Under the pieces are notes generated by a model. That model was not told the origin of the DNA. It worked only from the letters and a program-made list of their open reading frames with translations, and did not search any database. Of a stretch of 64,000 nt of DNA, positions 25,254 through 64,000 are shown in pieces. The translations under genes and the position numbers were made by a program. Source of the DNA: a virus; the IMG/VR virus record IMGVR_UViG_3300026518_000006, positions 62,001 to 126,000 of that record. One strand, 5' to 3'. Position 1 is the first letter of the stretch, and each line of letters starts with the position of its first letter.

Positions 25254-26711
25254 ATGTCTAAGAAATTCCAAGAACTTTTAGAGAGTTCAAAATACGCTCC
25301 ACTTTCAGAGCTTGACAAAAACACACTCGGTGCTATTATGGCTAACACAGAGCGTGAAACTGCACAAATGATTGCTGAGGGTACCATCTCTGCTGATATT
25401 GCACAGTTCACACCATTCCTTATGCCTATGCTTCGTAGAGTATATCCCGCTCTTATCGCAAATGAAATTTTAGGCGTTCAACCAATGTCAGGACCTACAG
25501 GGTTTATTTACAACCTTACAAATAGATTTGTAGGTAATCAGGCAACTCCAATTAATCCTAATGTTAAAGCTCAGGTTCTTGACCTTGACTTTGCTGATGC
25601 GCAAGTTGGTGATGTTATTACTGGTACAACTTCAGGTGCTGTAGGTACTGTTGTGTATGTTGAACCTGCTACATTTACTCGTAATGAGCAAAAACCGGGT
25701 AATGCACAAGGTGGTATTGCAGGTAAGCAATTTAGTGACAAATTCGCAGGTCGTGTACTTGTTGAATTGGCTGACCCTACAATCTTCTTCCAAAGAGGTG
25801 AAGCGGTAACAAGTACAGGTACTACAGGTGCAGGTAATGTTGATGCTACATATACTTCTGAAGCAACTTGGTTAGGTCTTCTTCCACAATATTCAGGTTC
25901 TTATACAACTGCTGAAGGTGAAATCAGAGGTACTGTTGGTAATGAAATGAACGAAGTTGGTATTGCGGTTGAGAGAAAGCAAATTGAAGCTCGTACTCGT
26001 AAATTGAGAGCTGAGTATACAATTGAAATGTATCAAGACCTTAAAGCAATGCACGGTGTTCTTGCAGACCAAGAGCTTATGGCTATGATGGGTTATGAGA
26101 TTAAAGCTCAAACAGACCGTGAAGTAGTTGATTTTGTTAATGCAGAAGCATCTGTTGAAGCAGACTTCGTAATCGGCGGTGCTAAAGACCCTTATGGTGT
26201 TGATGGTGCAAACGGTAGATGGGAAATCGAGAAGTATAGACTTTTCGCAACTAAACTCTCTGATATGAGCCGTGAGCTTGGTAGATTGAACCGTAGAGGA
26301 GCGGGTAATAAACTTCTTGTATCTCCAAAAGTTATTACTATGCTTGAGCAAATCGGTGGTTTCACTCCTGCATCTGTTGATAGCACAGTTAATCCACAGC
26401 TTGCTAATGGTGGTGTTGTTGGTAGATTTGACAACAAATTCTCTGTAGTAGTTGATAACTTTGCTAAGTCTGAGTACGCAACTGTAATCTATAAAGGTTC
26501 TAACCAAGATTCAATTGGTGTGTATGCTCCATATACTCCTGTTCAAATCCAAAAAGTGACTCATATCACTACTGGACAACCTGCACTAATCGCAATGAGC
26601 CGTTATGGATTGACAACAAATCCTTGGCAAGACTCAGCGAAGCAAATGGGTGAGAAATCTCCATACGCTTCTATGATTGGTGTAGACTTCACTTCTACTG
26701 TTTTAGCGTAA
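25254..26711 (+). CDS. 23: Major capsid protein, gp23-like
   Basis: 485 residues (T4 521). Matches gp23: PMLRRVYPALIANEILGVQP and MSGPTGFIYNLTNRF near 65-95, then the long HK97-type domain ending LTTNPWQDSAKQMGEKSPYA. The N-terminal delta domain is short; the best protease site is IAE followed by Gly at residue 42, against LTE/A at 65 in T4. ATG 25254 follows AAAAGGACGAAAA. A terminator lies just downstream. Confidence 0.93.
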   Translation: MSKKFQELLESSKYAPLSELDKNTLGAIMANTERETAQMIAEGTISADIAQFTPFLMPMLRRVYPALIANEILGVQPMSGPTGFIYNLTNRFVGNQATPINPNVKAQVLDLDFADAQVGDVITGTTSGAVGTVVYVEPATFTRNEQKPGNAQGGIAGKQFSDKFAGRVLVELADPTIFFQRGEAVTSTGTTGAGNVDATYTSEATWLGLLPQYSGSYTTAEGEIRGTVGNEMNEVGIAVERKQIEARTRKLRAEYTIEMYQDLKAMHGVLADQELMAMMGYEIKAQTDREVVDFVNAEASVEADFVIGGAKDPYGVDGANGRWEIEKYRLFATKLSDMSRELGRLNRRGAGNKLLVSPKVITMLEQIGGFTPASVDSTVNPQLANGGVVGRFDNKFSVVVDNFAKSEYATVIYKGSNQDSIGVYAPYTPVQIQKVTHITTGQPALIAMSRYGLTTNPWQDSAKQMGEKSPYASMIGVDFTSTVLA

Positions 26712-26834: not shown

Positions 26835-28481
26835 ATGAATAAACAAGCAATAGAAGCTTTTGAAAAAGTACAAAAAAATACATCATATACTCTACTAAAA
26901 GAAACTTATAAAAACTCCAAAACTAAATTTGATGCTATATGTGATATTCACGGAAAATTTAGTGCCTTTTTAAAAGATTTTAGGAAACCTTATGCTTGTC
27001 CTAAATGCAAACCTAAAAAACGCCCCCACAATTATATAGATGAAAATGAAGCATTTAATAGATTAAACAAAATAGATGGTTTTGTATATGGAAAATATAA
27101 CGGCTATGATGAGGATATGGAAATATTATGTATAAAACACAATAAAAAATTTATAAAAACTCCAAAAGCACACATAAAGCATAATGGTTGTGATTTATGT
27201 GCGAAGGAAAAATTAAAGAACTCTAAAAAAATAACCCACGATGAGAATATTAAATTATTTAGAAGTGTTCACGGTGATAAATATGACTATAGTAAGTTCG
27301 AAAATAAAGGAAATGATGTTTTATCCACTATAATATGTCCTATACACGGAGAATTCAAAAAAACTCCTCACGCACATAAAAGCGGTCAAGGGTGCCAAAA
27401 GTGTGCTTTAAATATAAAGTCGCTAAATGAACGAAAAGAGCAATTTATCGATATACATAACGATAGATATGATTATTCAAAAATAGAATTAGATGGACTG
27501 TATGTAAATAACATCATATGCCGTAACCACGATGAACCGTATATGTTTAGTCAACTAATAATAAACCACTTACAGGGAAAAGGTTGTCCGAAATGTGGAT
27601 TGAATATTTCAAAAGCAGAGGATGAAATAGCGCAATATATTGAGAGTTTCGGGGTTACTGTGATTAGAAGAGATAAAACCGTATTAAGAGGCAAAGAATT
27701 AGATATTTATATACCTGAATATAATTTAGCTATTGAATACGATGGGATGATTTGGCATTCAAGAGGTACCACATTTCCAAATAACTTGGAAGGGTTTGAT
27801 AAAAATGGACACATTAGTAAAACAAATATATGTGAAGAAAACGGAATACAACTTTTACACATTTTTGAAAATGAGTGGATTCTTAATAAAGAACAGTGGA
27901 AGAGTGTAATAAAAAATAAGTTGAATAAAACAGATGTTAAAATATATGCAAGAGATACAGAAATTAAAGAAATAAAAGCTACAGAAGCATCAAATTTTTG
28001 CGAAAAGAACCATTTGCAAGGAAAAAATGACTCAAGTTTGAATTACGGGCTGTTCTATAATAATAAGTTGGTTTCAGTGATGACTTTTTCTAAAAATAGA
28101 TTTAACAAAAAAGCAGATTATGAAATGGTTAGGTTTTGTAATTTATTAAATCATAATGTTGTGGGGGGAGCATCAAAACTCCTGAAATATTTTAGAGAAA
28201 AAAATTCAGGAAAAGTTTTATCATATGCTAACAGACGATGGTCTAATGGTGGATTGTATAGAAGTTTAGGGTTTAAAGAAATCGGAAAAACACAAGTAGG
28301 ATTTTATTTTTTTAATCATAAAGATATCACTAAGTTATATAGTAGACAAAAGTTCCAAAAACATAAATTAAAAAATATTAATGGTTTTGATTTCGATGAA
28401 AACAAAACAGCACTTCAAAATATGTTTGATAATGGGTATAGACAAATTTTTGATAGTGGGAATTTTGTTTTTATTCTGTAA
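26835..28481 (+). CDS. Free-standing homing endonuclease (zinc repeats + Vsr-like nuclease)
   Basis: 548 residues. The first ~260 have four ~60-residue zinc repeats (C-x-x-H-G-x-F ... H-x-x-G-x-G-C-x-x-C), for example CPIHGEFKKTPHAHKSGQGC. A Vsr/EDxHD-type nuclease core follows near 268-345: KAEDEIAQYIES, GKELDIYIPEYNLAIEYDG, MIWHSR and LLHIFENEW. The C-terminal ~150 residues are an acetyltransferase-like DNA-recognition region. Inserted directly behind the major capsid gene, a common homing site in T4-like phages. A TATAAT lies ~15 bases upstream; no late box. Confidence 0.75.
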   Translation: MNKQAIEAFEKVQKNTSYTLLKETYKNSKTKFDAICDIHGKFSAFLKDFRKPYACPKCKPKKRPHNYIDENEAFNRLNKIDGFVYGKYNGYDEDMEILCIKHNKKFIKTPKAHIKHNGCDLCAKEKLKNSKKITHDENIKLFRSVHGDKYDYSKFENKGNDVLSTIICPIHGEFKKTPHAHKSGQGCQKCALNIKSLNERKEQFIDIHNDRYDYSKIELDGLYVNNIICRNHDEPYMFSQLIINHLQGKGCPKCGLNISKAEDEIAQYIESFGVTVIRRDKTVLRGKELDIYIPEYNLAIEYDGMIWHSRGTTFPNNLEGFDKNGHISKTNICEENGIQLLHIFENEWILNKEQWKSVIKNKLNKTDVKIYARDTEIKEIKATEASNFCEKNHLQGKNDSSLNYGLFYNNKLVSVMTFSKNRFNKKADYEMVRFCNLLNHNVVGGASKLLKYFREKNSGKVLSYANRRWSNGGLYRSLGFKEIGKTQVGFYFFNHKDITKLYSRQKFQKHKLKNINGFDFDENKTALQNMFDNGYRQIFDSGNFVFIL

Positions 28482-33372: not shown

Positions 33373-33449
33373 TGGTACTGTCACAAGGACTCGAACCCTG
33401 AACCCCTCCGTCCGTAGCGGAGTGCTCTATCCAATTGAGCTATGACAGC
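33373..33449 (-). tRNA. tRNA-Arg(ACG)
   Basis: 77 nt with encoded CCA. Acceptor GCTGTCA/TGACAGT, anticodon stem CTCCG/CGGAG, loop CTACGGA (anticodon ACG), T-loop TTCGAGT. All arms close. Confidence 0.92.
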
Positions 33450-33701
33450 TTATTTATTTTCCCATATGTCTTTTACAACTTTCAATATACACTTGTCAAG
33501 TTCTGTCGCTTCTCTTACTTCTTCATCACAACTCCAAGCGTGAGAAGTATGATATTCAACACTCTGCATTAGCTTACCATCTTCAATCCACATAAGTCTG
33601 TCTATGTTGTATTTCTTTTTAATGAACTCTAAAGCAATCTTCTTTTCTTGTTCATCAGAGATTGTAATTTTTCTTGTTTCTTGAATATGTAGTTCAGTCA
33701 T
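33450..33701 (-). CDS. Small protein, unassigned
   Basis: 83 residues from ATG 33701, preceded by AAAAAGGAAATATA. The longer frame begins inside a tRNA remnant and is artefactual. Lys/Glu-rich with a helix-rich N-terminal half. It abuts the 5' end of tRNA-Arg. Confidence 0.5.
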   Translation of the reverse strand: MTELHIQETRKITISDEQEKKIALEFIKKKYNIDRLMWIEDGKLMQSVEYHTSHAWSCDEEVREATELDKCILKVVKDIWENK

Positions 33702-33719
33702 TATATTTCCTTTTTTTTT

Positions 33720-33757
33720 ATTGGACGGTGCTCTACCAACTGAGCTAATCATACCGT
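33720..33757 (-). pseudogene. tRNA remnant (5' half)
   Basis: Minus strand GGTATGATTAGCTCAGTTGG then TAGAGCACCGTCCAA: acceptor 5' strand, complete D arm and the 5' strand of the anticodon stem, then A tract and a ribosome-binding site instead of the 3' half. Confidence 0.6.
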
Positions 33758-33970
33758 ATTTTGAACTTTAAATTTCATTAGTTTATGATAAGGCAACTCT
33801 GTACCATCTTCCATTAATACAAATCTATCAGAAAATTCTTTAATTGTGTGCACAATTGTTTTGTGTTCTTCGTAAAATTTCGGGTCAACAAAATACTCAC
33901 CCTCCCATAACCAAAATTCACTGTCCCTGTTCTTTACCAAGTTTTTATAAATGACATCACCTTTTTTCAT
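33749..33970 (-). CDS. Small protein, unassigned
   Basis: 73 residues; ATG 33970 after AACAGGAATTAAT. Basic N-terminus (MKKGDVIYKNLVKNRD), then an SH3-like beta pattern ending FKVQNTV. Its stop overlaps the tRNA remnant. Function unknown. Confidence 0.5.
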   Translation of the reverse strand: MKKGDVIYKNLVKNRDSEFWLWEGEYFVDPKFYEEHKTIVHTIKEFSDRFVLMEDGTELPYHKLMKFKVQNTV

Positions 33971-34004
33971 ATTAATTCCTGTTCTTTTCTATTATTTGTT
34001 TAAC

Positions 34005-34066
34005 GTGGAGAATTTTGAAATCTCAACTTATTGACTTAACACTTTACCAACTGAGCTATACCCACC
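34005..34066 (-). pseudogene. Degraded tRNA-like sequence
   Basis: Minus strand GGTGGGTATAGCTCAGTTGG is a good tRNA 5' half; the remainder has a weak T-arm-like GAGA...TCTC and a partly pairing CTCCAC end, but the anticodon arm does not close and it is about 12 bases short. Confidence 0.5.
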
Positions 34067-34071
34067 ATATT

Positions 34072-34147
34072 TGGAGTTGGTAAAGGGACTCGAACCCTTA
34101 GTCTTTGGATTTGCAATCCAATGCCTTACCAATTTGGCTATACCAAC
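34072..34147 (-). tRNA. tRNA-Cys(GCA)
   Basis: 76 nt with CCA. Acceptor GTTGGTA/TACCAAC, anticodon stem TTGGA/TCCAA, loop TTGCAAA (GCA), T-loop TTCGAGT. Confidence 0.92.
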
Positions 34148-34151
34148 AAAA

Positions 34152-34256
34152 TTAATCTACAAACCAAATATTATGTTTTTTCATTTTTTGAATAGCCTGC
34201 TCTTGCTCTTCTTGGGTAGTAGCGAATACATACTTTTCAAGCAATTTTCTATACAT
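34152..34256 (-). CDS. Small helical protein (34 aa)
   Basis: ATG 34256 follows GGAGAAATAG. MYRKLLEKYVFATTQEEQEQ, then a basic end IWFVD. It fills the gap between tRNA-Cys and the next ORF; a good ribosome-binding site supports it. Confidence 0.45.
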   Translation of the reverse strand: MYRKLLEKYVFATTQEEQEQAIQKMKKHNIWFVD

Positions 34257-34265
34257 CTATTTCTC

Positions 34266-34430
34266 CTATCTAAATATCATTATAACAATCAATACAAATA
34301 TTGAAAATGGTAGTATACTGAATGTCATAATATCCAATATAGCTGTTTCCCAATCAATATTATCTGAGTGGTCTAACCAACCAAATTCTTTAAGTTTTTT
34401 GTATAATTTTAATTTTAACTCATTTTTCAT
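34266..34430 (-). CDS. Small single-pass membrane protein (54 aa)
   Basis: Start ATG 34430 with AAGGGTG upstream; the longer frame runs through tRNA sequence. Basic helical N-terminus (KNELKLKLYKKLKEF) and a strong C-terminal transmembrane segment (TFSILPFSIFVLIVIMIF). Function unknown. Confidence 0.5.
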   Translation of the reverse strand: MKNELKLKLYKKLKEFGWLDHSDNIDWETAILDIMTFSILPFSIFVLIVIMIFR

Positions 34431-34450
34431 TAAAACACCCTTAATAATGT

Positions 34451-34491
34451 TATCGAATACCATTGTTCTATTCAACTGAACTACAGCGATA
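34451..34491 (-). pseudogene. tRNA remnant (5' half)
   Basis: Minus strand TCGCTGTAGTTCAGTTGAAT then AGAACAATGGTATTCGA: acceptor and D arm only; the ends TATCG and CGATA can pair, closing a mini-fold. Three bases upstream of tRNA-Ser in the transcript's opposite sense of reading order. Confidence 0.5.
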
Positions 34492-34493
34492 TA

Positions 34494-34583
34494 TGGAGGA
34501 GAGCAGGATAATCGAAATCCATAGCCTGTTCTGACTACAATCACCTTAGCAGGGTGTTCTTCTACCTTAGAAGTTTACTCTCC
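34494..34583 (-). tRNA. tRNA-Ser(GCT)
   Basis: 90 nt with CCA and a long variable arm. Acceptor GGAGAGT/GCTCTCC, anticodon stem CACC/GGTG, loop CTGCTAA (GCT), T arm GGAT-TTCGATT-ATCC. Its 5' end overlaps the stop of the HNH gene by nine bases. Confidence 0.88.
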
Positions 34584-35081
34584 ATCTTTGTTTGTGTAAT
34601 ATTCTATTTTAAAGTCTTTCTCAGGTGCTTTTGATATGGCTTTATTTTGCATCTTCGCACCGTATAAACCTGAGCATTGTTTGGAACAGAAAAACCCTGA
34701 AGCTCTTTTTCTTAATTGGTTCTTAGTTGCGATAAATACTTTACCACACATAAAACATTTAACTTCTATATCTTTTACTCGTTTGGCATCTAAAGCACTG
34801 TGTTCCTTTCTCGATAAAATTTGTAGATTTTCTACTGAATTATTTGATGTATTTTTGTCTATATGGTCTACTGTTTCATCACTATTTAATACCCTTTTTA
34901 GACGAACTTCCATTATTGCTTTTGGAAAAGATATTGTTTTTAATTTCCCTTTTGTACCTTTTGGTAATGAAGATTTATTTAAAACAATATGTTGCCTACC
35001 GTCTTTTCTATTGTATGGTCCGTAAACCTTATCAAAATCATCGTATAAACTCAATATAATAGCGACAAATTTTTCATCCAT
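34575..35081 (-). CDS. HNH homing endonuclease within the tRNA cluster
   Basis: 168 residues. Classic HNH order: RLKRVLNSDETVDHIDKNTS (first His and Asp), NNSVENLQILSRKEHSALD (Asn and His), then a C-x2-C...C-x3-C zinc finger (CFMCGK ... CSKQCSG). Sits between tRNA-Ser and tRNA-Leu and overlaps tRNA-Ser by nine bases, an invasion typical of mobile HNH genes. Confidence 0.8.
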   Translation of the reverse strand: MDEKFVAIILSLYDDFDKVYGPYNRKDGRQHIVLNKSSLPKGTKGKLKTISFPKAIMEVRLKRVLNSDETVDHIDKNTSNNSVENLQILSRKEHSALDAKRVKDIEVKCFMCGKVFIATKNQLRKRASGFFCSKQCSGLYGAKMQNKAISKAPEKDFKIEYYTNKDGE

Positions 35082-35100
35082 TAAGTTCCTTTTTGATTAG

Positions 35101-35192
35101 TGGTACGGGCGGTGGGAGTCGAACCCACGATGTGAACTTATCTGTGAGGGATTTTAAGTCCCTTGCGTTTCAACCAGCTTCGCCACGCCCGC
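35101..35192 (-). tRNA. tRNA-Leu(TAA)
   Basis: 92 nt with CCA and long variable arm. Acceptor GCGGGCG/CGCCCGT, anticodon stem AGGGA/TCCCT, loop CTTAAAA (TAA), T-loop TTCGACT. Confidence 0.92.
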
Positions 35193-35204
35193 ACATAAGA
35201 AAAG

Positions 35205-35281
35205 TGGTACCCCATCAGGGAGTCGAACCCCGAAATTCTTGTTCCTAAGACAAGTGCCTATACCAATTCGGCTAATGGGGC
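35205..35281 (-). tRNA. tRNA with anticodon TAG (Leu), short variable loop
   Basis: 77 nt with CCA. Acceptor GCCCCAT/ATGGGGT, anticodon stem CTTGT/ACAAG, loop CTTAGGA so anticodon TAG (reads CUA Leu). The variable loop is only AATTT; bacterial tRNA-Leu normally has a long arm, so its charging identity is uncertain. Confidence 0.8.
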
Positions 35282-35312
35282 ACAGGTTTGTTGGCAAAGC
35301 CAACAAATTTTG

Positions 35313-35447
35313 TTATTTTACCATTTGTACTTCAGCTTTATTACTAAAGTAAACAACTCTGAAATCAACATTTTCTTTCAACCCTCTCTGTTTAAGGGCT
35401 TCAATTTTTTGCTGAATCTCTTGTTTGTTAATCACATTATACATCAT
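35313..35447 (-). CDS. Small protein (44 aa)
   Basis: ATG 35447 (or 35444) with AAAGGAGTG just upstream. MMYNVINKQEIQQKIEALKQ then a beta hairpin ending AEVQMVK. The longer frame starts in tRNA-Trp and is an artefact. Function unknown. Confidence 0.5.
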   Translation of the reverse strand: MMYNVINKQEIQQKIEALKQRGLKENVDFRVVYFSNKAEVQMVK

Positions 35448-35500
35448 CACTCCTTTAACTTTCTTTAAATATAACCTAAACCAAATCCTTTTAGTTTTTT

Positions 35501-35576
35501 TGGCAATCGGGAAGGGGCTCGAACCCTTGACCTGCGGTTTTGGAGACCGATACTCTACCAACTGAGCTACCCGATT
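35501..35576 (-). tRNA. tRNA-Trp(CCA)
   Basis: 76 nt with CCA tail. Acceptor AATCGGG/CCCGATT, anticodon stem CGGT/ACCG, loop CTCCAAA (CCA), discriminator G. Confidence 0.92.
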
Positions 35577-35580
35577 ACAA

Positions 35581-35699
35581 GAAAAGAATCGGCTGAAGTG
35601 CCGCTTTCTTTTCTGTGGGTTCCCGCTTCACTAAAAAGTGTCGGAGGGTGCTGATTCCCCTATCTTATCCGAAACCACTTTGTTTTCAACAAAACAAAG
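35581..35699 (-). other. Structured spacer between tRNA-Phe and tRNA-Trp
   Basis: Non-coding. GAAAAGA...TCTTTTC encloses CGGC-TGAAGT-GCCG (35581-35613), next to the tRNA-Trp 5' end; a second hairpin CTTTGTTTT-CAAC-AAAACAAAG lies at 35678-35699. Could be processing signals or a small stable RNA; I cannot assign a family. Confidence 0.4.
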
Positions 35700-35746
35700 A
35701 AAACTAAGTAAGCACCCATAAGACAAGATGCTTATTCTAATTTTCT

Positions 35747-35822
35747 TGGTCGTGCAGATTGGATTTGAACCAATAACGCCAAGCTCTTCAAGCCTGCGCT
35801 CTACCGTTGGAGCTACTGCACG
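35747..35822 (-). tRNA. tRNA-Phe(GAA)
   Basis: 76 nt with CCA. Acceptor CGTGCAG/CTGCACG, anticodon stem CAGGC/GCTTG, loop TTGAAGA (GAA), T-loop TTCAAAT. The 5' C is unusual. Confidence 0.88.
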
Positions 35823-56816: not shown

Positions 56817-57866
56817 TTACAACGACTTCGTGAAGAAATCTATAATATCTGCGTGGTCATCAAAAAGTTGCATATTCTTAACCTCTGCAAGTGGCACCCA
56901 TTTAGCATTAGAAGCATCATCAGACCCTTTTACTTTTGGAAGCTTTGGGTATTTGCCTTGAACAAAATCAGGCTCAATTTCAGCATAATAAGCGTTTGTC
57001 ATACGGGGTATTCCCATATTTCTAATAGGATTATCAAAGGTCTTGTATTCTTTGATGCTACCTTTTATTACTTTGTACGGAACCTTGATACCCGTCTCTT
57101 CAAACAGTTCTCTAATAGCACACTCCTCAAAAGTTTCATTTCTATTAACAAAACCTCCTGGAAGAGCATACACGCCTTTTCCTGGGGCGAATTTTCGTTC
57201 TATAAGCAAAACATTTCCTGAACATACAAGTACCATATCAGCACAGCAAAGCTTTAGTGTTTCGGGGTAAGGATAATCTTTAAATTTTTCAGCTTCTTTT
57301 TCGTGATATTCTCTTTCCTCTACCAAATCTTTATAGGCTTCGGTTGTGATGAATTTCTTCATATACTCCAAAGTTTGAGATGGAAGTGAATCTTTAAACA
57401 CCTCTTCTACTCTTTTTGGTGTAGGGTCAAGACTACACAATGTAAAGTACAAATTTCGGATTTCGGTTCCACTAATATTGCCTGCAAGAGACGGGACTTC
57501 TTGGTAATACCAATTCGGAAACTCTTTTAGATAAAAACTTGAAGCGTCTTTTGTGTGCCCGACAAGTGTTATTTTGCCTTGTGCAAGTGAGTTTACAACC
57601 ATTTCGACTTGACTTATCCACTTTTGTTCTTCGTAAAGATAATCTTTGATAGTAGCCACTTTGATTTTTGGGTCAATCGCTTTAATCCAACTTTCAATAA
57701 CATCTGTATTAAAAGGATTTTTTAAGTTTCGTCTTCTATTCGAAGAACCTATGAGAACTATCACATTAGTGTATTCTTTCAACATAATGTCGATTACACC
57801 TTTGTGACCATTGTGAAGAGGGGCAAATCTTCCGATGTAAACCCCTGTTGTGGGAGATATATTCAT
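56817..57866 (-). CDS. nadM: Bifunctional NMN adenylyltransferase / Nudix hydrolase (NadM-Nudix)
   Basis: 349 residues. N-terminal nucleotidyltransferase: VYIGRFAPLHNGHKGVIDIM (H-x-G-H), LIGSSNRRRNLKNPF and ISGTEIRN. C-terminal Nudix box GGFVNRNETFEECAIREL then FEETGI near 235. The first domain turns NMN into NAD; the Nudix domain of such fusions hydrolyses ADP-ribose in known examples. ATG 57866 follows AAGGAGCTTGAT. With nadV and nadK it completes nicotinamide to NADP. Confidence 0.9.
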   Translation of the reverse strand: MNISPTTGVYIGRFAPLHNGHKGVIDIMLKEYTNVIVLIGSSNRRRNLKNPFNTDVIESWIKAIDPKIKVATIKDYLYEEQKWISQVEMVVNSLAQGKITLVGHTKDASSFYLKEFPNWYYQEVPSLAGNISGTEIRNLYFTLCSLDPTPKRVEEVFKDSLPSQTLEYMKKFITTEAYKDLVEEREYHEKEAEKFKDYPYPETLKLCCADMVLVCSGNVLLIERKFAPGKGVYALPGGFVNRNETFEECAIRELFEETGIKVPYKVIKGSIKEYKTFDNPIRNMGIPRMTNAYYAEIEPDFVQGKYPKLPKVKGSDDASNAKWVPLAEVKNMQLFDDHADIIDFFTKSL

Positions 57867-59729: not shown

Positions 59730-59978
59730 TTAAATAAATAATTCAGGATAAACTTTTTCAAGTTTTTCTGCAAGATTTATCAATCGTTTTAAATCATTTG
59801 CTGTAAAAACAGTATCATCAATATTTATCAGTGTATCGCCCGATATATGAATAGCTGTAGAAGAATCCCAAATAACCGTACCTCCTTGAGAAGTGCAGTT
59901 ATTTAAATTGGCTCCATCAATAAGACTCATCTCCCCATATGGTCTATTTTGTATCGTTACTCCCTCCAAAATCTGCAT
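59730..59978 (-). CDS. Small protein with C-terminal YPELFI, coupled to nrdB
   Basis: 82 residues. The first half is a short parallel-beta pattern (SLIDGANLNNCTSQGGTVIW, pentapeptide-like), the end AEKLEKVYPELFI belongs to the shared C-terminal-peptide set. Its ATG overlaps the nrdB stop (TAATG), so it is co-translated with the reductase. Confidence 0.55.
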   Translation of the reverse strand: MQILEGVTIQNRPYGEMSLIDGANLNNCTSQGGTVIWDSSTAIHISGDTLINIDDTVFTANDLKRLINLAEKLEKVYPELFI

Positions 59979-61030
59979 TAGATATCATCCCAACCGTCAA
60001 TAACACTCATATTTTTATAATTGATTGATGTTACCTCAAAGTTGTTACTACGATTTGAAGCTTCATCATCTATACCCGCAATCAACTCCAAGTGATTGTA
60101 AGGATTCTTCTTTTTAGGAAAAATCTCTTCCAATCCTATGTGTTTTAATCTCATATTACCTAAATAGTGCGCATAGTCTTCAATACTTTGTTTGTTCATA
60201 CCGAGAATTTTATCGCCTATGATGTCTTGACTAAATTCAATTTCAATTTCTACAGCTTGTATAAACATTTCGTATATCATCTCTTCGTTTTCACCAATAA
60301 ATTCAGGGTTTTCTGCTCGTATTTCATTAATAATGTTCTTAAAAATATTACAGTGCTGAATTTCATCTCTTTGGATGTATCTAATTTGGGTATCAGTTCC
60401 TGCCATTAAACCACGACTTTGCAAATTGTGGAAAAATTGAAAACCATTATAAAAATAAAGACCCTCTAATAGATAGTTTGCAACTATGGTCTTTAATAGA
60501 GACAAATTAGTCGGGTTATCTTTGTGTTCTTGGTAAATTTCCGCTATCAAGGCATTACGCTTCAAAAGTAGTGGGTTTTCTCTCCATCTATATACAATTT
60601 CATCAGCTTTGTTTTTATCAAAAAGAGAAGATAGAATCCACCCATAAGATTTACTATGAATAGCTTCGTCATAAGTCTGTCTCGCTAATACATAAACAAT
60701 ATCAGGAGCCGTGATATATTCAGAAATATTCGGTAAATTGTTTGTTTGAATACTGTCCAAAAACACTAAGAAACTAATAATATCCTCAAAAGCTTGTTGC
60801 TCATCGGGGGTTAATTTTTTCCACTGTGCTTTATCATCTCCCATTGGGGTTTTGTGAGGAAGCCAGTTGTTACCATAAATAACATCAAAAATATCGTGAG
60901 CCCACTGATACTTGATATTGCTGAGGTTCAAGAGGTTTGTTGTGTCTCCTCCTAAAACTCTAACCTCTTCATCACTTGCATTTGGGTTGAATAGTGCTTT
61001 TTCTTTTATTTTTTGTTTGTTAGTAATCAT
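59978..61030 (-). CDS. nrdB: Ribonucleotide reductase class I, small subunit
   Basis: 350 residues. Diiron and radical features: FLVFLDSIQTNN (Asp), TYDEAIHSKSYGW (Glu, His), EGLYFYNGFQFFHNL (Glu and Tyr), RDEIQHCNIF (Glu, His). Provides the tyrosyl radical for deoxynucleotide synthesis with the large subunit encoded upstream. ATG 61030 overlaps the end of a GIY-YIG gene inserted between the subunit genes. Confidence 0.92.
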   Translation of the reverse strand: MITNKQKIKEKALFNPNASDEEVRVLGGDTTNLLNLSNIKYQWAHDIFDVIYGNNWLPHKTPMGDDKAQWKKLTPDEQQAFEDIISFLVFLDSIQTNNLPNISEYITAPDIVYVLARQTYDEAIHSKSYGWILSSLFDKNKADEIVYRWRENPLLLKRNALIAEIYQEHKDNPTNLSLLKTIVANYLLEGLYFYNGFQFFHNLQSRGLMAGTDTQIRYIQRDEIQHCNIFKNIINEIRAENPEFIGENEEMIYEMFIQAVEIEIEFSQDIIGDKILGMNKQSIEDYAHYLGNMRLKHIGLEEIFPKKKNPYNHLELIAGIDDEASNRSNNFEVTSINYKNMSVIDGWDDI

Positions 61031-61883
61031 TTATTTTTTCCTTTATGTATTGTATTAAATCATCTTTAATTTCCGCTGAGAACCATTCAGTAAAGCCATT
61101 AAATTTTTCATTAAATGTTAAGTTATAATCATTAAACTCATTATGAGCTTCATTTTCTAATCTCCTAATTACTTCATACTTGCCGTTAGCCTCAAAAAGA
61201 ACAACAACATTACCAACATCTTGAGAAATTTGCTTTAATCTTTTATCTAAATCTTTTGTGATGCCAACTTTAATCCCGATTTTATTTTCTATAACATACA
61301 AGATATAAATTGTACCCTCTTGTGATTTTTGATAATGATTTCTTGCTATTCCTTTTGACTTTTTTAAAGATGTTTCTTGCCACTTTTGAGTACCTAACTC
61401 TTCACCATATCTTTTGATATAGGCTTTCTCTGAGATTTCACACTTTTCTTTATAAGACTCGACATCTCTTTTACGATTATTGCAATAATCATTCCACTTT
61501 TGTGTGCCTAACTCTTGACCGAACTCATCTAAGTATCTTTGTTTTGAGTTTTTATATTTTATCTTATTACAATAATCATTCCACTTTTGTGTGCCTAACT
61601 TTTGACCATATTTAGTAATACATTTTTCAAGAGTAAAGCCCATAGTGTTTTGATAATCACTCCACTTTTGTGTGCCTAACTCTTCACCATATTTCTTGAT
61701 GAACTTTTCAAGAGTTTGTTTTTTAGACTCTCTGTACTTGGTGAACTCTTTAAGTCCTTTTTCATCACCGTATTCTAATATAAAACCTTGTTTAGACTTC
61801 ATACATTTTATACTGCAATAATTATATATAGTCTTCTTTTTTGTTTTTCTATCGAACTCTTTATTACAAATATCACACAACAT
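61020..61883 (-). CDS. GIY-YIG homing endonuclease with G-T-Q-K-W repeats
   Basis: 287 residues. N-terminal C-x2-C zinc motif and C-x3-C pair (CDICNK ... CSIKCMKS), then five repeats containing Y-G-E-E-L-G-T-Q-K-W spaced ~25-35 residues, and a C-terminal GIY-YIG-type domain of the T5orf172 kind (YILYVIENKIGIKVGITKDL with KRLKQIS). Sits between nrdA and nrdB. Late box at 61901. Shares its repeat with the endonuclease at 62392 although the nuclease domains differ. Confidence 0.72.
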   Translation of the reverse strand: MLCDICNKEFDRKTKKKTIYNYCSIKCMKSKQGFILEYGDEKGLKEFTKYRESKKQTLEKFIKKYGEELGTQKWSDYQNTMGFTLEKCITKYGQKLGTQKWNDYCNKIKYKNSKQRYLDEFGQELGTQKWNDYCNNRKRDVESYKEKCEISEKAYIKRYGEELGTQKWQETSLKKSKGIARNHYQKSQEGTIYILYVIENKIGIKVGITKDLDKRLKQISQDVGNVVVLFEANGKYEVIRRLENEAHNEFNDYNLTFNEKFNGFTEWFSAEIKDDLIQYIKEKINDY

Positions 61884-61924: not shown

Positions 61925-62395
61925 TCAATTGCTACAATCAGTACAGTTTGTCTCTTTTTTACCATCAATCGTTAAACTGTAGTAAACGGCTTTCAGTTCT
62001 TTTTTCTTAAATCCATCTAAAATAGCGTCTGAAATCAATTTTATAGTCGTTAATTCAGGATTAATATTAACTTCCATTGAAACACCTGTATCTGTCCATT
62101 TCTGTATTCTTCGTGTAACATTTATCATACTATGAGCACCGTATTGGAATTTCCCTTTATAGTACCAATATCTTGTCTTAATATAGCGTGGCAAAATCGG
62201 TACACTAATATCAGCTAAAGTTTGGTAATTTAGTTTGGAGTGTGGGGGTTGCCAAGAAGCAGTAGCCCCCATCAGAATACCGCTTGATGTGTTGTGACTT
62301 GCACACCCATTATCTAAGAAGTAATGGTGGTCTACCTCGACTTCAAAATCATAGGTGGGAATGGGGTCTTTTTTTGTTATTTTCTTAATTTTCAT
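61925..62395 (-). CDS. nrdA: Ribonucleotide reductase large subunit, C-terminal half with C-intein
   Basis: 156 residues. Residues 1-35 are a split-intein C-part: IPTYDFEVEVDHHYFLDNG then CASHN, ending in His-Asn. Residue 36 (Thr) starts the extein TSSGILMGATASWQPPHSKL, which continues the reductase, and the C-terminus has the redox pair CTDC. In trans it should splice to the N-half at 63343. Overlaps the endonuclease gene by four bases (ATGA). Confidence 0.88.
   Translation of the reverse strand: MKIKKITKKDPIPTYDFEVEVDHHYFLDNGCASHNTSSGILMGATASWQPPHSKLNYQTLADISVPILPRYIKTRYWYYKGKFQYGAHSMINVTRRIQKWTDTGVSMEVNINPELTTIKLISDAILDGFKKKELKAVYYSLTIDGKKETNCTDCSN
62291..62395 (-). other. C-terminal part of split intein
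   Basis: 35 residues ending C-A-S-H-N before extein Thr. Standard blocks F and G are present (Y-D-F-E-V near 15 and final H-N). Confidence 0.85.
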
Positions 62396-63312
62396 AATAA
62401 TTCCTTTAATTTATTGATTATATTTTTTAAATCTGAATTTTTGTTTATTCTGATTAATTTGTAGCCTTTTTCTAAGGCAACTTTCTCTTTCGCTTCATCA
62501 TTATCGATAATTGATTGTTTATCAATTAGAAAATGGTTTACTCCTATTTCATCCTCATTATAATGATACATATACCCGTCATATTCTATTATAATTTTTT
62601 TGTCCAATATTACAAAATCATAATAATATTTTCGGTCTGCTTCAACATAAAACTCTTCCATATCTTTATACCCAAAAGCGACATTCAACCCCATCCCCAA
62701 ACAAAACCCCCATATAGGCAATAGAAGCTCAAGAGACTCTTTTGATGCACTCCCTTTTAATTTATTTAAAGGTGTGTATTTCCCATTATAATGTCTCAAT
62801 AAAATCTCTTCATCTGATATATCAATATCATATTTTTTTCTAAAATGACTAATTATCATCTTATTGGATTGTTCGAAGTTATTTTTATAATACTTCTCGG
62901 TACCTTTTTCGACACCATATCTATCGATATAACCATCTAATGTATTAGCTAATGAAACTTTTTTAGCCTTTTCAAGATATTTTTTAGTTCCTATTTCTTC
63001 ACCATACCTTGAGACGAAAGATTTCAAATCACTTGAAATTTTTCCTTTTAGTTCATTAACTTTTTCAATAGCTTCATCTTCAGAAAGATTATATCTCTCC
63101 ATTTGCTGATTAATATCATATGGATTAAACTTTCTTTTAGATTGTTTAAGGTTAAATTGTTTTCTCCCCTCTACTTCACCTAATCTGTAAATATAACTTT
63201 CTAAACTATGTCCTGTTTTTAATTTTAGTTCATTAACTTTTTCAATAGCTTCATCTTCAGAAAGATTATATCTCTCCATTTGCTGATTAATATCATATGG
63301 ATTAAATCTCAT
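62392..63312 (-). CDS. Vsr-like homing endonuclease inside fractured nrdA
   Basis: 306 residues. Two nearly identical 35-residue N-terminal repeats (FNPYDINQQMERYNLSEDEA), repeats containing R-Y-G-E-E-I-G-T-K-K-Y as in the GIY-YIG gene, then a Vsr/EDxHD-type nuclease near 215-300 (YYYDFVILDKKIIIEYDGYM and KEKVALEKGYKLIRINKNSD). Free-standing endonucleases of this family between split-intein gene halves are known from environmental phage fractured genes. Confidence 0.8.
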   Translation of the reverse strand: MRFNPYDINQQMERYNLSEDEAIEKVNELKLKTGHSLESYIYRLGEVEGRKQFNLKQSKRKFNPYDINQQMERYNLSEDEAIEKVNELKGKISSDLKSFVSRYGEEIGTKKYLEKAKKVSLANTLDGYIDRYGVEKGTEKYYKNNFEQSNKMIISHFRKKYDIDISDEEILLRHYNGKYTPLNKLKGSASKESLELLLPIWGFCLGMGLNVAFGYKDMEEFYVEADRKYYYDFVILDKKIIIEYDGYMYHYNEDEIGVNHFLIDKQSIIDNDEAKEKVALEKGYKLIRINKNSDLKNIINKLKELL

Positions 63313-63342
63313 AGCTAAATCTCCCTATATATTTAATGAGAG

Positions 63343-63690
63343 CTATTGCTTCTCATTGATATTTATAATATCATCACCCTCTTTCAATTCATCACAACGA
63401 ATCCAAATCTCTTCGCCATTTCTATAGACAAGTAATTTGTGATTGTAGGTGAATTCATAAGTATTTCCATCTTCAAATTCAATTTCTATAACAGGTTGTT
63501 TTCCGTTATACCAAATGCGGTTTACTTCACTTTCTCCGTTTAATGTAGGTACTTTTATTGCGTCTATACCTATCCATTGCGGAACATTCAACTCTTCTAT
63601 TTTTCTGTAGTCTATATTTTGTTCTTCAAGAATATCATAAATAGATTTATTGCCGTCTGTTGTTTTCATTTTATTATGACCACTTTGACA
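63343..63690 (-). other. N-terminal part of split intein
   Basis: 115 residues from Cys1 to the stop, with blocks A and B and no endonuclease domain. Partner is 62291-62395 across the endonuclease gene. Confidence 0.82.
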
Positions 63691-64000
63691 GTTTGGTGCA
63701 GTAGCCAATAATAGGAAATTTCTAATCCCTTTTTCTTGAATTTTTTTAGACATTTCAGACCACTTGAAACCATTTAGGCTCTCTTTATCAAGTTGTTTGG
63801 TATTTTTTCCGAACATTTTAGAATAATCGGCTTTATCAAATAAAGGATAAGCACCTTTTTTCTCTGCAAGTTGAACACTTCTCTCATAACAATACCAAGC
63901 GATTTTTTCGTAAACCTTTTCAAGCTCGTCTAAGTCTTCAGGCTTCTCATAAGATAATTTATTATAAGCCATCCAATCACCTGTGCCCAACACTCCAATA
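63343..64000 (-). CDS. nrdA: Ribonucleotide reductase large subunit, N-terminal half with N-intein (partial)
   Basis: The frame enters from the right edge (IGVLGTGDWMAYNKLSYEK) and ends at TAA 63343. Extein residues include KGIRNFLLLATAPN, directly followed by Cys and an N-intein (WIGIDAIKVPTLNGESEVNR; block B YEFTYNHKLLVY). Spliced to the C-half it gives the usual reductase sequence LLLATAPN-TSSGILMG. The apparent start near 63993 is only the window edge. Confidence 0.88.
   Translation of the reverse strand, partial: IGVLGTGDWMAYNKLSYEKPEDLDELEKVYEKIAWYCYERSVQLAEKKGAYPLFDKADYSKMFGKNTKQLDKESLNGFKWSEMSKKIQEKGIRNFLLLATAPNCQSGHNKMKTTDGNKSIYDILEEQNIDYRKIEELNVPQWIGIDAIKVPTLNGESEVNRIWYNGKQPVIEIEFEDGNTYEFTYNHKLLVYRNGEEIWIRCDELKEGDDIININEKQ

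What the first reader, a model, noticed from the sequence alone, without database searches (positions are those of the whole stretch)
61925..64000. Fractured nrdA: two split-intein halves with a Vsr-like endonuclease between them
The reductase large subunit ends ...LLLATAPN followed by an N-intein; 950 bases later a C-intein precedes TSSGILMG.... The halves are separated by a free-standing Vsr-like endonuclease gene that overlaps the C-half by four bases. This matches the fractured-gene arrangement reported from environmental phage sequences. The exact splice junction can be read from the sequence.
Basis: partly seen in the sequence, partly recalled or inferred. Interest (0 to 1): 0.72.

Follow-up and report, generated by a model that had tools for sequence, protein, structure and literature searches.

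The report
Fractured phage nrdA with split intein
A large phage encodes its DNA-building-block enzyme in two separate genes that a split intein should weld back together as protein, with a selfish DNA-cutting gene between them; the arrangement is a known kind, but the many relatives found here suggest that such broken genes lose the cutter and are fused again over and over.

Summary
On the minus strand, nrdA is fractured. The N-half ends LLLATAPN followed by a 115-aa N-intein. After 947 bases comes a 156-aa C-half (35-aa C-intein, then TSSGILMG). A 306-aa endonuclease gene lies between and overlaps the C-half by ATGA. All splicing residues are present. Joined in silico, the exteins give a 753-aa NrdA, collinear with E. 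coli R1 and above the curated NrdA cut-off. No continuous nrdA was found in the 235.6-kb record. The endonuclease is Vsr/EDxHD-like by profile and predicted fold. This is a new member of a known kind (fractured genes, Dassa 2009; Aeromonas phage Aes123 polB).

New here: (1) the same genome carries a fractured helicase and a terL fractured at least twice. (2) Of 41 distinct loci at this NrdA loop, 22 are split with an intact endonuclease (Vsr, HNH-like or another type), 5 hold decayed remnants, 8 are split without one, 6 are contiguous. On the tree endonuclease presence changes at least 17 times, and each contiguous form is isolated among split sisters (6 fusions against 16 or more splits), so repeated re-fusion is favoured. 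Trans-splicing itself is untested.

The parts
63691..64000 (-). C-terminal part of the N-extein of NrdA, ending LLLATAPN (gene continues to about 66573, outside the window)
   Evidence: PF02867 and TIGR02506 matches; 4r1r alignment collinear through the junction after joining the exteins
63346..63690 (-). N-intein, 115 aa, Cys1 at 63688-63690; block-B His; stop codon 63343-63345
   Evidence: PF14890; C1, T10, H84, D106 invariant in 10 sequences; a relative's contiguous form folds as a Hint domain
62392..63312 (-). free-standing homing endonuclease, 306 aa
   Evidence: ORF; relatives aligned in A1; phrog_22677
62752..63312 (-). helical repeat region of the endonuclease, likely DNA-binding; holds a 91-bp direct repeat (63039-63129 and 63216-63306, 98% identical)
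   Evidence: same repeats in the neighbouring GIY-YIG gene
62395..62751 (-). Vsr/EDxHD-like catalytic domain (invariant E243, G246, H250, D272, K275)
62392..62395 (-). ATGA: stop of the endonuclease overlapping the start of the C-half
   Evidence: sequence; like overlaps in relatives
62291..62395 (-). C-intein, 35 aa, MKIKK...ASHN; His34-Asn35 at 62291-62296
   Evidence: TIGR01443 20.3 bits, cut-off 15.6; M1-K8, D16, Y25, N29, H34, N35 invariant in 10 sequences
61925..62290 (-). C-extein of NrdA, 121 aa from Thr+1 (62288-62290), with Tyr-Tyr and Cys-x-x-Cys; stop 61925-61927
   Evidence: PF02867 449-522; Y138, Y139, C151, C154 invariant
61020..61883 (-). second free-standing nuclease gene, T5orf172/GIY-YIG type, 287 aa, with the same repeats
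   Evidence: PF10544 E 1e-10, PF13455 5e-8; phrog_681, phrog_22677
59978..61030 (-). nrdB, class I small subunit, 350 aa
   Evidence: PF00268 E 1.4e-76; NF007184 360.9 bits, cut-off 310

Best explanation
nrdA was invaded at its substrate-phosphate loop by a split intein. Shown: two separate ORFs end and begin with complementary intein halves (Cys1 ... His-Asn|Thr+1) with every splicing residue intact, and an intact Vsr/EDxHD-like endonuclease gene sits between them. Inferred: the two polypeptides associate through the intein halves and trans-splice (Cys1 attacks at Asn|Cys1, transfer to Thr+1, Asn35 cyclises) to give a 753-aa NrdA, which also excises its own second, continuous LAGLIDADG intein and pairs with NrdB. 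Inferred: the endonuclease, aimed by its N-terminal repeats, cuts nrdA alleles that lack the element, so that repair copies in the intein halves with the endonuclease gene, which spreads the element. The ATGA overlap suggests that the C-half is translated by coupling to the endonuclease.
For: ORFs, junctions and coordinates. Intein families on both halves; catalytic residues invariant in relatives; a contiguous relative folds at pLDDT 96 as a Hint domain matching gp41-1, NrdJ-1, Npu DnaE and Aes123 PolB1. Joined exteins score 383.7 with TIGR02506 (cut-off 341) against 317 for the N-half alone and align without a gap at the junction to E. coli R1 4r1r. Only these two nrdA pieces lie in the record. 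Endonuclease. The element is polymorphic among close relatives, as homing predicts: 17 changes of endonuclease presence on a 41-tip tree, decayed copies. N-intein under constraint: dN/dS about 0.09-0.18; endonuclease 0.20-0.36 (some dS values saturated).
Against: No splicing, cutting or homing was observed. The endonuclease is shorter (306 aa against 353-494 aa in most relatives) and its target is unknown. The whole endonuclease model is only middling (pLDDT 70, pTM 0.38), although the catalytic domain matches.
Confidence: 0.88

Rival explanations
1. The two halves work without splicing: they associate non-covalently into an active reductase, as reported for the mobE-split NrdA of Aeromonas phage Aeh1, and the intein pieces are relics.
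For: Precedent for a working two-piece NrdA without splicing (PMC3653736).
Against: All splicing residues are intact and invariant across diverged relatives; N-inteins show dN/dS about 0.09-0.18. A relic would decay. The split falls in the loop aligned with E. coli PSETSS, where leftover intein halves should disturb the active site.
Confidence: 0.05
2. Trans-splicing works, but the intervening gene is a passenger that no longer homes; the split intein is now vertically inherited.
For: Many relatives have lost the endonuclease and keep the split (8 without, 5 with remnants). The window's endonuclease is short and holds a recent internal duplication.
Against: The ORF is intact with the EDxHD residues conserved; related endonucleases show dN/dS below 1.
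Confidence: 0.25
3. Assembly or sequencing error broke one continuous intein gene in two.
For: Contiguous versions exist in relatives.
Against: The halves are separated by a complete 306-aa gene with its own start, and the same split point with MKIKKITK recurs in dozens of independent assemblies.
Confidence: 0.01

Closest known systems
Fractured genes with split inteins and Vsr-like (EDxHD) endonucleases, Dassa et al. 2009 (paper not held; known here through PMC3653736, PMC12350094, PMC7090010)
   Same: Gene broken at a conserved site, intein halves on both pieces, free-standing endonuclease between; nrdA among the reported hosts (7 nrdA in ocean metagenomes, PMC3653736).
   Different: Here in a 235.6-kb phage record with a second continuous intein in the same protein and further fractured genes (helicase, terL) in the same genome.
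Aeromonas phages Aes123/Aes508 gp43 (polB): split intein with putative VSR endonuclease
   Same: Same layout; endonuclease homologous (26% identity over 69% of the query). The fused Aes123 PolB1 split intein is solved (9hth); the contiguous relative modelled here matches it at Z 16.4.
   Different: Host gene is DNA polymerase; that intein starts with Ser and is cysteine-less (title of 9hth), and the ORF overlaps are longer (16-17 bases).
Klebsiella phage KP13-7 nrdA
   Same: Split intein at the same NrdA loop with an ORF between, overlapping both halves.
   Different: The intervening ORF looks HNH-type; its Cys439-site intein is split too. Annotated only as nrdA_1, nrdA_2 and hypothetical.
Campylobacter phage CP220, PC14 and IBB_35 NrdA intein
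   Same: Homologous intein at the same NrdA loop.
   Different: Contiguous 146-153 aa mini-intein, no endonuclease.
Aeromonas phage Aeh1 nrdA-a/mobE/nrdA-b
   Same: nrdA in two genes with a nuclease gene between (PMC3653736).
   Different: Reported to be functional without self-splicing; mobE-type endonuclease.

Membership tests
Fractured gene (Dassa type) | host gene in two consecutive ORFs, each ending or starting with an intein half | tested here: met
Fractured gene (Dassa type) | free-standing endonuclease gene between the halves | tested here: met
Fractured gene (Dassa type) | no continuous copy of the host gene | tested here: met
   (record may be incomplete)
Fractured gene (Dassa type) | trans-splicing of the halves | not testable with these tools
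   needs co-expression
Split intein (Hint superfamily) | block A Cys1, block B His, penultimate His, terminal Asn, +1 Cys/Ser/Thr | tested here: met
   C1, H84, H34, N35, Thr+1
Split intein (Hint superfamily) | Hint fold | tested here: met
   tested on the contiguous relative L067 (152 aa): Z 17.6 to gp41-1, 17.4 to NrdJ-1; the window's own two-chain complex was not modelled
EDxHD/Vsr homing endonuclease (I-Bth0305I family) | Vsr-like catalytic domain | tested here: met
   profile to 1ODG/1VSR/1CW0 E 0.0012-0.0017; Z 8.9 to 1vsr, 8.6 to 3r3p
EDxHD/Vsr homing endonuclease (I-Bth0305I family) | conserved acidic and His catalytic residues | tested here: met
   E243, H250, D272 invariant in 8; Asp of the YDF motif in 7 of 8
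EDxHD/Vsr homing endonuclease (I-Bth0305I family) | site-specific cutting of the empty allele | not testable with these tools
   needs an assay
Class I NrdA | active-site Cys225, Cys439, Cys462, Tyr730-731 and C-terminal Cys pair (E. coli numbers) | tested here: met
   spliced positions 221, 441, 474, 735-736, 748 and 751
Aeh1-type fragmented nrdA without intein | no intein at the break | tested here: not met
   intein halves present

The most novel reading that the evidence does not exclude
Gene fracture by split inteins is a reversible phase of a homing cycle. At one loop of phage NrdA the split state is the background, endonucleases with at least three kinds of catalytic domain come and go in the gap, decay while their 3' end survives (it overlaps the start of the C-half), and the two halves are repeatedly fused back into one contiguous intein (six isolated cases, two still showing Met at the old start codon). 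The window is the endonuclease-bearing phase. Split inteins in phages would then be sources, not only products, of contiguous mini-inteins.
Probability: 0.5. Interest if true: 0.6.

Novelty: new member of a known kind. Interest (0 to 1): 0.48.

Why it matters
The locus confirms a rare known arrangement in a large phage genome and gives a new candidate natural split intein (115 + 35 aa, Cys1/Thr+1) for protein engineering. The relatives matter more. The split dnaE of cyanobacteria has been called an evolutionarily stable arrangement (PMC3403396). Close pairs in different states (split with endonuclease, remnant, split without, contiguous) make it directly testable whether gene fracture is reversible and what keeps it, and show different nuclease domains on a shared repeat module at one insertion site.

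Tried and rejected
Endonuclease as query in viral contigs gave no relative; relatives came through the C-half and N-intein. The N-half as query matched nothing. Pfam alone does not name the endonuclease (DUF559 E 0.026, below cut-off), and Foldseek on the whole model has no hit at E 0.001: the Vsr assignment rests on the family profile and the domain alignment. Mitoribosomal and cap-snatching rows are taken as common PD-(D/E)xK or helical arrangements. The Dassa 2009 paper is not held. YN00 dN/dS failed; only NG86 values, several with dS above 1. Tandem Repeats Finder found nothing at the locus; the repeats were found as dispersed direct repeats. A paper search for AceL-TerL gave nothing. The host of the phage was not determined.

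Full report
WHAT IS THERE. The window is bases 62001-126000 of a 235,593-base virus record. On the minus strand, in order of transcription: nrdA N-half (L003:7344-10574, 1076 aa; window part 63343-64000), endonuclease (62392-63312, 306 aa), nrdA C-half (61925-62395, 156 aa), a T5orf172/GIY-YIG gene (61020-61883) and nrdB (59978-61030). The N-half reads ...LLLATAPN|CQSGHNKMK...DDIININEKQ*, the C-half MKIKKITKKDPIPTYDFEVEVDHHYFLDNGCASHN|TSSGILMG.... The endonuclease stop and C-half start share ATGA, with ribosome-site-like AAAGGA just upstream. The N-half also holds a continuous 329-aa intein with a LAGLIDADG domain (PF14528) between SANL and CTES, outside the window; Vibrio phage ICP1 NrdA also carries a continuous LAGLIDADG intein, but its exact site was not compared.

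IS THE PROTEIN A REDUCTASE ONCE JOINED? Removing both inteins gives 753 aa. TIGR02506 rises from 317 bits for the N-half and 36 for the C-half to 384 (cut-off 341). The joined protein aligns from residue 4 to 745 with E. coli R1 (4r1r 7-740), without a gap at the second junction, which falls at the PSETSS loop; that this loop binds substrate phosphate is my own knowledge. Cys residues aligning with 225, 439 and 462 lie in the N-half; Tyr-Tyr (730-731) and the C-terminal Cys pair lie in the C-half. Neither half alone carries the full set. PF02867 finds no other copy in the record.

IS THE INTEIN INTACT? In ten aligned sequences C1, T10, H84 and D106 of the N-intein, and D16, N29, H34 and N35 of the C-intein, are invariant, as is MKIKKITK at the start of the C-half. 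The window's two chains could not be modelled together. A contiguous relative (L067, 152 aa) folds with pLDDT 96 into a Hint domain: Z 15-19 to many inteins, including gp41-1, NrdJ-1 and Npu DnaE, and 16.4 to the fused Aes123 PolB1 split intein.

WHAT IS THE GENE BETWEEN? Pfam gives only a sub-threshold DUF559 match. A profile of eight relatives has E. coli Vsr as its best three PDB matches (E 0.0012-0.0017). The predicted catalytic domain (residues about 188-306) aligns with Vsr 1vsr (Z 8.9, 103 residues, 2.7 A) and with the homing endonuclease I-Bth0305I 3r3p (Z 8.6, 89 residues, 3.4 A). E243, G246, H250, D272 and K275 are invariant in the eight. The N-terminal half is made of helical repeats; one 91-bp unit is duplicated at 98% identity. 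Related repeats occur in the neighbouring GIY-YIG gene (shared phrog_22677). DNA binding by the repeats is inferred.

RELATIVES. tblastn on phage records gave the annotated precedents: Aes123 polB with N-intein, 'putative VSR endonuclease' and C-intein; Campylobacter CP21 polB pieces with a homologous ORF between; KP13-7 nrdA; contiguous mini-inteins at the same NrdA loop in CP220, PC14 and IBB_35. The C-half and N-intein queries brought 23 and 80 viral loci and two metagenome-assembled genome contigs. I classified them by profile and reading frame. Forty-one distinct NrdA-site loci: 22 split with an intact endonuclease (13 Vsr-type; 7 with HNH-like motifs by eye, of which the five scanned share phrog_5104; KP13-7, HNH-like by eye; L074 with DUF7487 and a weak PD-(D/E)xK match); 5 split with a decayed endonuclease (L010, L016, L050, L051, L070); 8 split with none (gaps 2-143 bases; L066 has a short HNH-like 3' remnant by eye); 6 contiguous (PC14, CP220, L067, L087, L098, L102). 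The exact insertion position differs by one to three residues in protein alignment, probably through indels in the loop. Outside nrdA the same split intein type occurs in NrdJ-like exteins (KPSG|; L018, L027); there L025 keeps only the 3' part of the endonuclease that L021 has whole.

TREE. On trees of the intein alone and of intein plus flanking exteins, endonuclease presence needs at least 17 changes and contiguity 6; every contiguous form sits alone beside split loci. If the contiguous state were ancestral and never restored, 16-23 independent splits would be needed, all at the same place with the same new start; if split is ancestral, six fusions suffice. L098 and L102 keep a Met at the old C-half start. 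The trees are unrooted, several branches are long (L042, L043, L044, L070, L094), and Ile or Leu at that position in other contiguous forms is neutral, so re-fusion is favoured, not proven.

SAME GENOME, OTHER FRACTURES. PF14890 and TIGR01443 searches of the own record showed further halves. A helicase is broken inside its DEC|H motif, with a 361-aa endonuclease (phrog_15427, TnsA-like) between. terL is broken at least twice (PRQSGK|C...SHN|TVT and GYT|C...SHN|CNI), with short N-fragments and long C-fragments, a GIY-YIG-like gene (phrog_681) and a phrog_5104 gene between the pieces. A third terL break (L039 around 2478) lacks recognisable C-intein residues and is unexplained.

MECHANISM AND STEPS. 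Shown: anatomy, residues, fold of a relative, polymorphic endonuclease. Inferred: trans-splicing in the cell, homing by the endonuclease, translational coupling. The 3' end of the endonuclease persists in decayed copies, which fits its serving as leader and ribosome site of the C-half.

VERDICT. Ordinary as a kind, well supported as an instance, with an unusually rich set of relatives that make the fate of fractured genes testable.

Noticed in passing
G000:C1:154886-157856 (L039:14887-17857): Helicase gene fractured by a split intein inside the DEC|H motif, with a 361-aa TnsA-like endonuclease between; similar site in L028 and L119.
   Followed up: partly
G000:C1:141356-146480 (L039:1357-6481): terL broken into at least four ORFs by two atypically split inteins with GIY-YIG-like and HNH-like genes between; a third break without clear C-intein residues.
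   Followed up: partly
window 26835-28481 (+): 548-aa Cys-repeat (CapR-like) plus EDxHD/Vsr-like free-standing endonuclease right behind a probable major capsid gene (25254-26711); a similar gene lies behind terL (L039:3-1322). Resembles the HEG outgroup described in PMC12350094.
   Followed up: partly
window 61020-61883 (-): GIY-YIG/T5orf172 gene between nrdA C-half and nrdB overlaps nrdB by 11 bases and shares YGEELGTQKW-type repeats with the Vsr-like endonuclease: different nuclease domains on one repeat module.
   Followed up: partly
window 63039-63129 and 63216-63306: 91-bp direct repeat, 98% identical, inside the endonuclease gene: recent duplication of one repeat module.
   Followed up: no
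L025 5765-6001 against L021 4801-6001: NrdJ-like pair in which one contig keeps the whole endonuclease and the other only its 3' end, in DNA otherwise about 80% identical.
   Followed up: partly
L044 3335-4360 (KP13-7): The NrdA intein before the Cys439 equivalent, continuous in the window's phage, appears split in this Klebsiella phage: same protein, two split sites.
   Followed up: no
window 33373-35822: Cluster of six tRNA genes (Arg, Cys, Leu, Leu, Trp, Phe) on the minus strand.
   Followed up: no
window 56817-57866 (-): 349-aa fusion of a cytidylyltransferase-like domain and a NUDIX domain near nrdB.
   Followed up: no
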